Below are positions 27,420 to 52,229 of a DNA stretch of 64,000 nucleotides, in pieces. Made by a program: the position numbers and the translations under genes. The DNA lies in assembly GCF_026151205.1 (NCBI RefSeq), contig NC_087081.1, positions 15,738,837-15,802,836 on the forward strand. Direction: 5' to 3'. Positions within the stretch are counted from its first letter, which is position 1; each line of letters starts with the position of its first letter. Origin of the DNA: Bolinopsis microptera. Taxonomy: Eukaryota; Ctenophora; Tentaculata; Lobata; Bolinopsidae. The notes below the pieces were generated by a model. That model was not told where the DNA came from. It did no database searches and worked only from the letters and a program-made list of their open reading frames with translations.

Positions 27420-28011
27420 TCAATGTTAAAGATGACAGGAATAAGAAATGGTTATGTGGAGGTTTTAAAGAAATTTGCGCAAAATACGCGCCAGCATGTT
27501 ATACGAAATTAGGTAAAAAACCCAAAATCGCCATATTCAGGTGCCTTAAAAACCATGTTAAAATTGAGTTAGAGATCTGAAACTTTGCAGGGCGTCTAGA
27601 CCTTGTCCAAATCGACCGTAAAAAAATTTGCATGTTTCAGGAGTATCGGGAAGTGGGTTTTCTGGAACCCCTGTTTTACAACAGATTGTCGTGAAGGATA
27701 TATATATATATGTATGTATAGACGCTTTGGCAGTCAATTGTAGCCTACGTTTAAGTGTCCGTAGATTCAAAAGTATAAAAGATACAGTCATTTGGAACCA
27801 CAGGTTTTAAAGATAATCGTTTATACTTTAGTTTACATTATATCGAAAAATAATTTATCGTCATCATCATCACTTGATGACATCATCAATTTAAGTGTTT
27901 TTAAAACTTGATTTTTGAGAAAATAACAACTTTTCAAATCGATTTTAAACCATTAAGAAGTAATTTTATTTAAAATCTGAGGACATTTTCATCTTAGATA
28001 ATTGTTCAAGC
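27420..28011. other. AT-rich interval, nothing recognised
   Basis: No gene supported. A short (TCA)n run is near 27,860. Confidence 0.4.
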
Positions 28012-28025
28012 ATTCTGAAAATCTA
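28012..28025 (+). repeat. 14-bp target duplication, left
   Basis: ATTCTGAAAATCTA, identical to 29,232-29,245. Confidence 0.85.
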
Positions 28026-29231
28026 ATAATGAGGTCTGATCGTCATCTTCTTACAGCGTTCGATGTCTGTGTGAAGGTAAAATGGTGATATCCTCTGGAT
28101 CAGGCAGAGGTTGAGTGTTATCGGGATTATTTCTTTAGTAGTGGAACAGCAATACTAAGGTAATGGGACTACAGCGGACCCTCTACCGGCCAAACCTTGT
28201 TAACAAAGCCGCAGTCAAGGTTCGGTGAACGGTAGTTAAAAGCGCTTAAGGTAATGGGACTTAGTATTGCTGTTCCACTACTAAAGAAATAATCCCGACC
28301 TCTGCCTGATCCAGAGGATATCACCATTTTACCTTCACACAGACATCGAACGCTGTAAGAAGATGACGATCAGACCTCATTATTGATGATCCCGCTCGTC
28401 GGAGAAGATAAAGGCCTTGCTCAGCAATGGGTAGGGTTTGCAGTTTAGATAGCCATGTGGCACGCTGCAACTAAATTATTCGAGATTCTTCTCGAATAAT
28501 TTTCAAGACTTGATGTCAACTTATTATCGGAGAAAAAGACGATTTATAAAGGAGCAACCTAACATTCTACGGTCTACCCACTCCTCATTTCTTAAGATGT
28601 CCACTACATGATGTTGCTCTACCAATTTGACTTATGTCCCTTAAGCGCTTTTAACTACCGTTCACCGAACCTTGACTGCGGCTTTGTTAACAAGGTTTGG
28701 CCGGTAGAGGGTCCGCAGTAGTCCCATTACCTTAGTATTGCTGTTCCACTACTAAAGAAATAATCCCGATAACACTCAACCTCTGCCTGATCCAGAGGAT
28801 ATCACCATTTTACCTTCACAAAGACATCGAACGCTGTAAGAAGATGACGATCAGACCTCATTATTGATGATCCCGCTCGTCGGAGAAGATAAAGGCCTTG
28901 CTCAGCAATGGGTAGGGTTTGCAGTTTAGATAGCCATGTGGCACGCTGCAACTAAATTAATCGAGATTCTTCTCGAATAATTTTCAAGACTTGATGTCAA
29001 CTTATTATCGGAGAAAAAGACGATTTATAAAGGAGCAACCTAACATTCTACCCACTCCTCATTTCTTAAGATGTCCACTACATGATGTTGCTCTACCAAT
29101 TTGACTTATGTCCCTTAAGCGCTTTTAACTACCGTTCACCGAACCTTGACTGCGGCTTTGTTAACAAGGTTTGGCCGGTAGAGGGTCCGCAGTAGTCCCA
29201 TTACCTTAGTATTGCTGTTCCACTACTAAAA
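28026..29231 (+). mobile_element. Tandem-dimer element with inverted 5' segment
   Basis: Two direct copies of a ~480-bp unit (about 28,262-28,737 and 28,738-29,231) share CTTAGTATTGCTGTTCCAC, CTGATCCAGAGGATATCACC and CCTTAAGCGCTTTTAACTACC. They are preceded by 28,026-28,248, which is the reverse complement of the unit junction. Each unit has a stem built from ATTATTCGAGA and TCTCGAATAAT (the second copy has one change). The 14-bp flanking duplication fits target-primed reverse transcription, and the 5' inversion fits twin priming. There is no coding capacity, so the enzyme would come from elsewhere. Tandem multimers of small non-coding units recall Penelope-mobilised retrozymes, but no hammerhead core was found. 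Confidence 0.75.
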
Positions 29232-29245
29232 ATTCTGAAAATCTA
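29232..29245 (+). repeat. 14-bp target duplication, right
   Basis: Pairs with 28,012-28,025. Confidence 0.85.
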
Positions 29246-29946
29246 CCGGAAAAGTTTCCTACCTTACTCCTTCATAAAGATATTTGCTATTGAAGTTAGT
29301 GCTTTTTTGAAGAATAATTTTATAAAAACACAAAAGTTGTGAATTAGTATTCTCTGGTGTTGGACCATCCCTCGGGTTGTGGAGCTCAATTTTGCTTCTT
29401 AAAGGTCTAAATTGTGTTATAGGCTAGTTTTAAAGTTTAAAATCGAAAATTTGCACACGTGGGGACACGCCCAAATTGATTTAAAATAGCTTATATCACT
29501 GAAAATTGTTATTTTCACGATTTTTATCAACTTTGGAGTCCCGTTGTGATCCAAGTTCTTTTTGAAATCTTCTGAAACTTTGCATGCTTATCAAACTATA
29601 TATTAAATACCACTATTCAAAAATTTACGATGATTCAATATTGTATGCGCACGCAACGTCCGCTCAAAGTTTGCACGTGCGAAAGGTGAGAATTTTGCTC
29701 ATTTGTGATTTCGAATATATTCTGCTTTCCCACGATATTTAAATGGCATTATATATGAATTAAATGCCAACTTGAATGAGTAAGCTGTAAGAAGTGCCAT
29801 ATTCAGTCTGTTATCGACAGATATACCTACCTAAACACAAGGAAATGTTTTCAAAGGTAAAATTTCGAAATCGTTGAAATTACCTCCTTATTAATGAAGT
29901 TTCGACTGTGTAAATTATCCTGACATTATAATCAAAAAGAGATGAT
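29246..29946. other. Interval without recognised gene
   Basis: AT-rich; no supported feature. Confidence 0.4.
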
Positions 29947-30275
29947 ATTTGACCAAAACCCATAATCATGGGTAGAGTGAACCGCTGCCAGTGTCTCTCT
30001 TTTCCAAACAAAAGGAAATGATATTAATTTGAGGAACCGTCCGCAAATGCAAATTGATACCGAGAATGAAATCGGTCGCTCGCTTTTCCCATTCATTCAC
30101 GGCTTACGAATTGTAATAAAGCTTATTGAGTGGGAAAAGCGAGCGACCCATTTCATTCTCGGTATCAATTTGCATTTGCGGACGGTTCCTCAAATTAATA
30201 TCATTTCCTTTTGTTTGGAAAAGAGAGACACTGGCAGCGGTTCACTCTACCCATGATTATGGGTTTTGGTCAAAT
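29947..30275. mobile_element. Near-perfect palindromic MITE, about 329 bp
   Basis: ATTTGACCAAAACCCATAAT at the left is mirrored by ATTATGGGTTTTGGTCAAAT at the right. The two arms (about 29,947-30,085 and 30,132-30,275) pair almost throughout, leaving a ~45-bp loop. The 75-codon frame inside is part of the palindrome. A diverged single arm is at 45,490-45,670. The flanking duplication is not resolved. Confidence 0.8.
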
Positions 30276-50983: not shown

Positions 50984-52118
50984 ATTACTACTACTATGTC
51001 GGAGCTAAGTCCGATCTACGACAGAAAACCCCTTCCATATATCCCTGTCCCGCATCAGGGTTCGCAGTTCCTCTTTAGAGTTTGTCCCAACTTCCTTCAG
51101 TAACATAGACAAGTAGCTTTGTCTTGGTCGGCCTTGCTGTGCTCTACCGTGCGTAGGTTCCCATAAGACTAAATCACTGGCAAGTAGCTCAGGATGTCGG
51201 ATGCAGTGTCCCGTCATTTTTAATCTCCTGCTTCGTAACTTGTTTGACAGCCTTGGGAGGCTACCATACAATGTTATATTGCTGACCTTGTCCTTCCATG
51301 AGATACCCAGCACCATACGCAACATCTTTGTGTATGTCCCGTCCAAACTTTTCTCGTGAGCCTTTGTCAGTGTCTAGGTTTCTGATCTGTAGAGCGGTGC
51401 TGATTCACAAGCCGCTATGAACAATCTAATCTTGAGGCTCTTTGAGAGTTTGGATTTCCAGATATCCTTCAGTCTATGTAGGGCACCCCACGATTTTCCC
51501 TTTCTGACCCTTATCTCCCTATCTGTGCTCTCAATCCAGGAGCCTAAATCATCTACATTTTCTATGGCTTCCCCGGATCGACTTTGTAGGTCGCTAGATC
51601 GATCCTCCATATTCAGTGTCATGACCTTGGTCTTGCCTTCGTTTATGTGTAGTCCCACGCTTGCTGCCGCCGATTCTACTCCGAGCAGGAATTCGTTAGC
51701 CTTGTCCATGTCCTCAGATATATTAAGTGCTATATCATCTGCAAAGTCCACATCGGTGATGATCTTGGGCCCCACTCTTCTGCTTTTTCTACGTTCGAGA
51801 GTGAGTTCAAGTCGCTCCGCATCATCGCCTATGGCTTGCCTCATACAGTAGTCGATGACTATTGCAAAGAGGTAAGGTGCTAAGGTATCACCCTGTAACA
51901 CACCTGCAAGTATCTCGAACAATTCAGTTTCTCCGTCTGGAGTTAGGACTTTGGCCATTGTCTTCTCGTACATGAGCCGTATAAGCTGCACGATTTTGAC
52001 TGGAATGCCGTACGCTTCTAGAATCTTTAGCATTTTCCCACGATGTACACTGTCGAAAGCCTTCTTAAAGTCTATAAATGTCAGAACAGCTGGCAGTTTC
52101 CGACTCTTGACACCCTCT
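50984..52118 (-). pseudogene. 5'-truncated non-LTR retrotransposon (LINE) reverse transcriptase
   Basis: Minus-strand frame of about 370 codons covering the RT core: LTFIDFKKAFDSV (block A), LQGDTLAPYLFAIVID (block B), DVDFADDIAL (catalytic FADD), then GLHINEGKTKVM and a C-terminal GRPRQ-type region ending at 51,005. One TAG (51,374-51,376), where the family has Trp in the LYxSETWTLT-like motif, splits the otherwise continuous frame. The element starts abruptly at 52,118. Its 3' end runs into a (TAG)n-like tail at 50,984-50,999, both typical of target-primed insertion. The host repeat is rejoined without a clear duplication. Confidence 0.85.
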
Positions 52119-52229
52119 GATGAGATCGAGCCTCCTTAGTTTATTTTGGTAAGTTTATTTGAGTAAGAAACGACATTTGAGTCCCCACCCTCGCACAGGA
52201 TTATTTTCAATTTTCTTGTTGTGTTCCAA

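What the first reader, a model, noticed from the sequence alone, without database searches (positions are those of the whole stretch)
28012..29245. Non-coding tandem dimer with 5' inversion and 14-bp target duplication: possible retrotransposed multimer
Two ~480-bp direct units plus an inverted 5' piece lie between exact 14-bp duplications. A 14-bp duplication and a 5' inversion are what target-primed reverse transcription with twin priming gives. A multimeric, non-coding template suggests a circular or self-processing RNA, as in Penelope-mobilised retrozymes. I could not find the hammerhead core, so a different ribozyme or a new mechanism is possible. This is the best candidate here for an undescribed element.
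Basis: partly seen in the sequence, partly recalled or inferred. Interest (0 to 1): 0.78.

Follow-up and report, generated by a model that had tools for sequence, protein, structure and literature searches.

The report
Circle-copied retroelement without known ribozyme
The repeat is one copy of a young mobile element that seems to be copied round and round from a small circular RNA starting at two fixed points, much as Penelope-type retroelements do, yet it carries no ribozyme we can recognise.

Summary
Window 28012-29245 is one copy of a dispersed, non-coding family with a 474-nt period; I merged the hits into 43 clusters.

Of 26 insertions analysed, 22 have the same anatomy. Two arms of one monomer point outward, head to head. 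One arm ends at site A (q471-473) and the other at site B (q104-111, 108 nt past A). None is A/A or B/B; four lack one of the two ends.

The inner joint varies, and the longest arm holds about 7 units. TSDs are 11-15 bp (mode 13) in 22 of 22 loci tested; 0 of 450 mispaired controls reach 10 bp.

In some insertions, all units of both arms share variants seen in no other analysed insertion. This points to one monomer template, hence rolling reverse transcription of a circle. Some arrays are not uniform.

Two fixed start sites fit the Penelope-like (PLE) mechanism (PMC11167929) better than LINE twin priming. GIY-YIG ORFs abound in the genome.

No hammerhead or other Rfam ribozyme was found. I call it a retrozyme-like element inserted in PLE fashion. 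How the circle closes and which PLE is the partner are open.

The parts
28012..28025 (.). Left target-site duplication, 14 bp
28021..28251 (-). B-primed arm (inverted): outer end at site B (q~108), then q1, then q473 down to q356
28246..28261 (.). Inner head-to-head junction with a short template-switch patch (TAAGGTAATGGGACT)
28260..28757 (+). A-primed arm, inner unit (10-nt deletion near its start, seen by eye; 7-nt insertion at q289)
28758..29231 (+). A-primed arm, outer unit of 474 nt; used as the reference monomer (q1-474)
29206..29231 (+). Site A, predicted stem-loop with TTCCACTACTA; outer terminus of one arm in the 22 two-arm insertions
28845..28869 (+). Site B region (GATCAGACCTCATTAT, predicted hairpin); outer terminus of the other arm in the 22 two-arm insertions
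28473..28502 (+). Hairpin with 13-nt arms (q197-226); inner junctions of other insertions cluster at its 5' side
28864..28888 (+). TTGATGA-TCCCGCTCGTCGGA-GAAG: closest approach to a hammerhead core; two core positions wrong and no stem I; judged not a hammerhead
29232..29245 (.). Right target-site duplication, 14 bp

Best explanation
A young, non-autonomous, non-coding retroelement with a 474-nt circular RNA. An enzyme of Penelope type cuts both strands of an AT-rich target about 13 bp apart, leaving two 3' ends. Each end primes reverse transcription at its own fixed internal RNA site, one at A and the other at B (108 nt apart). Both reverse transcriptions run around the same small circle, for up to about 7 turns in the longest arm seen. 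The two cDNAs then meet head to head and are joined at a variable point, often by 1-6 nt of microhomology. SHOWN from sequence: fixed A and B ends, one of each in 22 of 26 insertions, outward same-sense arms, TSDs, variable inner joints, and unit homogeneity within many insertions. INFERRED: RNA intermediate, circularity of the template, cutting of both strands, and the PLE enzyme. UNKNOWN: how the circle is closed, since no known ribozyme was found.
For: 22 of 26 analysed insertions have one A and one B end, 0 A/A, 0 B/B; 11 more loci show outward A and B ends by coordinates alone. TSD 11-15 bp in 22 of 22 tested loci versus 0 of 450 controls at 10 bp or more. Target half-sites are partly alike from both sides. 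Variants private to one insertion and present in all covering units of both arms: C11:36964 221T>C 6/6; C6:13582518 84A>T 6/6 and 342insT 6/6. Variants shared between insertions are mixed within an insertion in 7 of 48 cases, against a mean of 95% (minimum 84%) in 500 shuffles of segments. Full units keep the whole period apart from scattered small indels (33 of 39 are 471-475 nt, extremes 456 and 487), which argues against back-splicing with an excised piece. PMC11167929 (text parts 1, 2 and 4 of 4): an anole PLE cleaves and extends both strands and starts at two internal RNA sites, which explains the 'tail'. PMC3846280 (passages): PLE insertions with head-to-head pLTRs, a 31-bp tail and 8-10-bp TSDs. 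This genome holds many GIY-YIG ORFs, a number of 820-1043 aa, two pairs of them head to head by coordinate.
Against: The one PLE junction read here (L080, 1 kb) shares no clear sequence with the monomer. No A/B site was seen directly beside a listed GIY-YIG ORF; the nearest are 3-4 kb off (C11:36964-39992 to C11:43215; C8:14318469 to C8:14322462) (my comparison by eye, all capped lists). The A-to-B distance of 108 nt exceeds the 30-40-bp tail of described PLEs. Not every array is uniform: C7:10188434 has q215 T in 3 of 8 full units listed, the two full units of C13:11642209 differ at several sites, and the window copy's units differ and share no private variant. 53 private variants are in one unit only, against 14 in all covering units. 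The right-hand target half-sites are weaker (C at -1 in 6 of 19, against 13 of 19 on the left). The RT domain of the GIY-YIG ORFs was not checked. No expression data.
Confidence: 0.66

Rival explanations
1. PLE-type two-site priming on a linear multimeric transcript read from an already homogeneous genomic array; no RNA circle.
For: Genomic arrays exist and could be transcribed; PLEs themselves are thought to use multi-copy transcripts (PMC11167929). The near-identical set (C7, C8:18338553, C6:1145038) could be its own source. Arrays such as C7, mixed at q215, fit a multimer of unlike units.
Against: Insertion-private variants fixed in all covering units of both arms need a prior homogenised source with the same variants; none was seen among the 26 analysed (of 43 clusters). 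Old arms diverge freely (C3:13818004: 20 one-unit variants), so homogenisation in place looks weak.
Confidence: 0.22
2. LINE-encoded twin priming of a tandem transcript.
For: RVT_1 matches are abundant (150 of 6502 candidates scored, 150 matches); inverted arms and TSDs are also seen in L1 (recalled).
Against: Twin priming leaves a random outer breakpoint for the inverted part (recalled); here both outer ends are A or B in 22 of 26 insertions. No long poly(A) at the ends printed.
Confidence: 0.05
3. DNA-level event: local tandem duplication, satellite, or a DNA transposon with internal repeats.
For: Tandem period; palindromic outline.
Against: Dispersed on 12 contigs, TSDs of variable length, variable inner joints with microhomology; sites A and B differ in sequence.
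Confidence: 0.03
4. A circular RNA replicon (viroid-like) that is only occasionally reverse transcribed into the genome by host PLEs.
For: Full-period 474-nt units and no coding capacity.
Against: No ribozyme found on either strand; circular-fold z only -2.6 (+) and -1.1 (-); many near-identical copies look like genomic amplification.
Confidence: 0.04

Closest known systems
Metazoan non-LTR retrozymes (Cervera and de la Pena 2020, PMC7229834)
   Same: Small non-coding tandem repeats from dimers to multimers, dispersed, GC below 50% (0.39 for window 28001-30000), TSDs longer than 4 bp; circular RNA proposed as template and PLEs proposed as helpers
   Different: No type I hammerhead found here; monomer 474 nt (reported repeats 150-450 bp, circRNAs about 170-400 nt); a two-site, head-to-head insertion anatomy is not mentioned in the passages I read ('inverted' has 0 occurrences in the main text)
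Penelope-like elements, Penelope/Poseidon type (PMC11167929, PMC3846280)
   Same: Head-to-head same-sense arms, two fixed RT start points giving a 'tail' on one side, TSDs (8-10 bp in the A. vaga passages; 11-15 here), AT-rich targets
   Different: No ORF; tail-equivalent 108 nt rather than 30-40; the one PLE junction read in this genome is unrelated in sequence
Short nonautonomous Penelope elements of heliconiine butterflies (PMC6685494, two passages seen)
   Same: Short elements assigned to Penelope without their own enzyme
   Different: The passages describe no tandem, head-to-head or two-site structure; no comparison of sequence made
L1 twin-primed 5' inversions (recalled)
   Same: Inverted arm and TSD
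   Different: Fixed outer end of the inverted arm, no poly(A), multi-turn arms

Membership tests
Non-LTR retrozyme | Self-cleaving hammerhead ribozyme (type I) in each monomer | tested here: not met
   Rfam lax search of 27900-29400: only two chance snoRNA hits; five older loci at E<=5: one chance hit; core scan: only TTGATGA..GAAG. No positive control for hammerheads in this genome (search did not complete)
Non-LTR retrozyme | Small non-coding tandem monomers, dispersed, with TSDs | tested here: met
Non-LTR retrozyme | Expression as circular RNA | not testable with these tools
   No RNA reads; indirect support from unit homogeneity
Penelope-like element (insertion mode) | Two fixed RT start sites, head-to-head same-sense arms | tested here: met
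   22 of 26 insertions A/B; the RT start itself is inferred from the ends
Penelope-like element (insertion mode) | TSDs and AT-rich target | tested here: met
Penelope-like element (insertion mode) | Enzyme cuts and extends both target strands | not testable with these tools
   Inferred from TSDs and two outward arms only
Penelope-like element (as a family member) | ORF with RT and GIY-YIG | tested here: not met
   No frame above 49 codons in the circular monomer
Non-autonomous partner of a named PLE | Termini shared with an autonomous PLE in the same genome | tested here: inconclusive
LINE with twin priming | Random outer breakpoint of the inverted part; poly(A) or LINE 3' end | tested here: not met

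The most novel reading that the evidence does not exclude
The element carries an undescribed self-cleaving or self-circularising RNA. This makes lossless 474-nt circles without any known ribozyme, and a PLE enzyme copies each circle from two dedicated start sites at once, one per target strand: twin-primed rolling-circle reverse transcription.
Probability: 0.27. Interest if true: 0.85.

Novelty: new variant of a known kind. Interest (0 to 1): 0.66.

Why it matters
That PLEs mobilise animal retrozymes has been a suggestion based on co-occurrence, tandem copies and shared hammerheads (PMC7229834 and PMC7761336 passages). Here the insertions themselves carry a PLE-like signature: two fixed start sites, one at each end of the insertion. 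Some also carry a mutational record that the insertion came from a single monomer. That makes circular-RNA-templated retrotransposition testable from genomes alone. It also gives a candidate for a new ribozyme or another lossless circularisation route.

Tried and rejected
Hammerhead by eye and script: one near-core only, rejected because C3 and A15.1 are wrong and stem I is absent. Rfam on the window (gathering), on 27900-29400 (lax), on five old loci (E<=5) and on the PLE junction (lax): nothing near a gathering score. Back-splicing as circle maker: disfavoured because full units keep the whole period. An indel cluster at q356-360 (L061, L012, L063, L070, L079) was considered as a scar of an RNA ligation joint. 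Similar small duplications occur elsewhere in the unit, so it stays a lead. Shared ends with the abundant PLE family 1: no match. A hammerhead search of the whole genome (RF00163) did not complete, so there is no positive control for hammerheads in this genome.

Rows dropped: of 43 clusters merged by hand had flanks and 26 were analysed. Left out were C1:14836787, C3:2403549, C5:744616, C6:13292734, C6:14681311 (fragmentary or composite), C3:2930857 (duplicate of C3:2866279) and C8:18344409 (shares its right flank with C8:18338553). One search tested 22 of the 26. Of the other four, C7:10188434 and C11:36964 are split over loci (13-bp TSD read by eye), C6:14678419 has 12 bp, and C1:3695195 has none above 6 bp. 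One search used 19 target sites, one per target family. One search lists 8 of 9 full units of C7; one was lost in removing duplicates. One search leaves out short self-matches of the q197-226 palindrome.

Full report
WHAT IS THERE. The window copy has a 14-bp TSD (28012-28025, 29232-29245), a minus arm (28021-28251), and a plus arm of two units (28260-28757, 28758-29231). A circular monomer has no frame above 49 codons. The window is C10:15738837-15802836 of a 264.65-Mb genome in 232 contigs.

A FAMILY. The monomer gives 141 matches in the genome. Merged by hand these make 43 clusters on 12 contigs. The first look scored only 40 of 347 candidates, so this is a lower bound. Pattern counts at up to 2 mismatches: site A 347 (reversed-pattern control 45), site B 262 (control 8). 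Several clusters are identical or nearly so, which implies recent activity.

ANATOMY. Of 26 insertions analysed, 22 have two arms of the same polarity pointing outward. One arm ends at A (q471-473 of the 473-nt reference) and the other at B (q104-111). A is on the left in 13 and on the right in 9. None is A/A or B/B. Of the four others, three have only a B-ended arm and a TSD. One (C1:3695195) ends at A on one side and at q240 of a 23-nt inverted stub on the other, and lacks a TSD. In one of the 22 (C8:1368562) the B arm is only 20 nt.

Further loci are known only as coordinates, from the first 100 places listed. Five (C3:11369894, C4:2089164, C6:6980569, C6:16740765, C9:13941670) show A, an inverted A, then B 108-112 nt on. 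Six (C4:4759344, C4:6734752, C5:1893748, C8:9259905, C8:16216558, C9:1994596) show one outward A and one outward B. Many other A or B places stand alone in these capped lists and were not resolved.

TARGET. TSDs are 11-15 bp in 22 of 22 loci tested, 13 bp in 13 of them. Mispaired flanks never reach 10 bp (0 of 450). Nineteen target sites give a half-site of about TTTYNRRC|AWW. C stands at -1 in 13 of 19 left sides but only 6 of 19 right sides, so the symmetry is partial. Five insertions with different inner joints, in both orientations, hit the same nucleotides of another repeat. These are the window copy, C13:3943496, C1:12934284, C3:2866279 and C11:36964. That repeat has 1210 sites at up to 3 mismatches, and the matched flanks of the five are 84-97% alike.

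ORIENTATION OF COPYING (inference). In both arms the target 3' end abuts a copy of the same RNA sense, so both strands would prime on the same RNA. The staggered cut would leave 3' overhangs of about 13 nt. The inner joints are variable. 13 of 22 show 1-6 nt overlap. Of 44 inner ends, 8 lie at q191-214 (5' side of a hairpin at q197-226) and 9 at q422-459, as expected where reverse transcriptase stops.

ONE TEMPLATE PER INSERTION. The longest arm has 3209 nt, about 7 units. Insertion-private variants occur in every covering unit of both arms in C11:36964 (221T>C, 6/6), C6:13582518 (84A>T and 342insT, 6/6 each), C3:13818004 (seven at 2/2), C1:12934284 and C3:2866279 (one each, 2/2). In all, 14 private variants are fixed (12 over both arms, 2 over one arm), 53 are in one unit only, and 1 is intermediate. 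Of the 53, 20 lie in the old copy C3:13818004. Variants shared between insertions are mixed inside an insertion in 7 of 48 cases; shuffled segments give 95%. Relatedness of arrays explains part of this. But variants private to one array and fixed in it need amplification from a single unit at or near the insertion. A circle does this in one step. Against it: C7 is mixed at q215 (3 of 8 full units listed), C13:11642209's units differ, and the window's units share no private variant.

MACHINERY. PMC11167929 (parts 1, 2 and 4 of 4) reports that an anole Penelope protein cuts and extends both DNA strands and starts reverse transcription at two internal RNA sites. The stretch between those sites is the PLE 'tail'. 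PMC3846280 (passages) describes head-to-head pLTRs, a 31-bp tail and 8-10-bp TSDs. The match in mode is close; the spacing of 108 nt is larger. The genome gives 147 GIY-YIG matches at E<=0.001 (150 of 524 candidates scored), a number of them in ORFs of 820-1043 aa. By coordinates two pairs are head to head (C7:4870310/4871099 and C2:19246795/19247510) and others are in direct tandem. Their RT domains were not checked; that they are PLEs is inferred from the GIY-YIG match, the ORF lengths and, for L080, the look of the two ORF ends. L080 has no clear similarity to the monomer. So 'inserts like a PLE' is well supported; 'mobilised by PLE family X' is not shown.

RIBOZYME. None of 4227 Rfam families matches the window copy above chance at E<=10. 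Five old loci give none. The best hammerhead look-alike fails at two core positions and has no stem I. It is the same in the young copies and altered in four older ones (L067, L070, L071, L077). Circular-fold z-scores are -2.6 (+) and -1.1 (-) on 60 shuffles each. How a circle of exactly one period forms is therefore open.

PRIOR ART. PMC7229834 (text parts 1-2 of 6 and passages) and PMC7761336 (passages) propose that PLEs mobilise animal retrozymes via circular RNA. The searches, judged by their listings, show no paper on non-autonomous PLE-type elements with two fixed ends. One listed paper (PMC6685494, two passages seen) mentions short nonautonomous Penelope elements in butterflies, without structure. 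The library holds open-licence papers only.

On recount I corrected the one-unit variants of C3:13818004 (20), the contig count (12), the unit-length count (33 of 39) and the statement on the hammerhead look-alike. I stated the non-uniform arrays and the weaker right half-sites more fully, and lowered confidence in the best explanation slightly for them.

Noticed in passing
window flanks of 28012-29245; genome-wide: The target repeat (TTCAAGCATTCTGAAAATCTACCGGAAAAG) has 1210 sites at up to 3 mismatches; its own identity was not worked out.
   Followed up: partly
L061, L012, L063, L070, L079 at q356-360: Small insertions or deletions recur at GTCCC-TTAA-GCGC; a possible reverse-transcriptase stumble at a ligation joint or hairpin.
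   Followed up: partly
C7:10188434-10193313: Position q215 is T in 3 of 8 full units listed and C in the rest, in both arms; not explained by a single template.
   Followed up: no
window 51374-52135 (-): Open frame with reverse-transcriptase-like motifs by eye (FADD box); not searched.
   Followed up: no
window 41.3-43.0 kb and 53.9-54.4 kb: Long simple-repeat tracts, read as open frames on both strands; the first with strong strand skew.
   Followed up: no
window 30040-30190: Inverted repeat with a short loop, seen by eye; possibly a foldback element.
   Followed up: no
C9:1635656-1636663 and C6:13292734-13293583: Two copies with roughly 400 bp inserted near q170 of the monomer; a longer subfamily or a shared duplication.
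   Followed up: no
L012 flanks (C8:535462): Insertion lies inside a tandem satellite with a period of about 52 bp.
   Followed up: no
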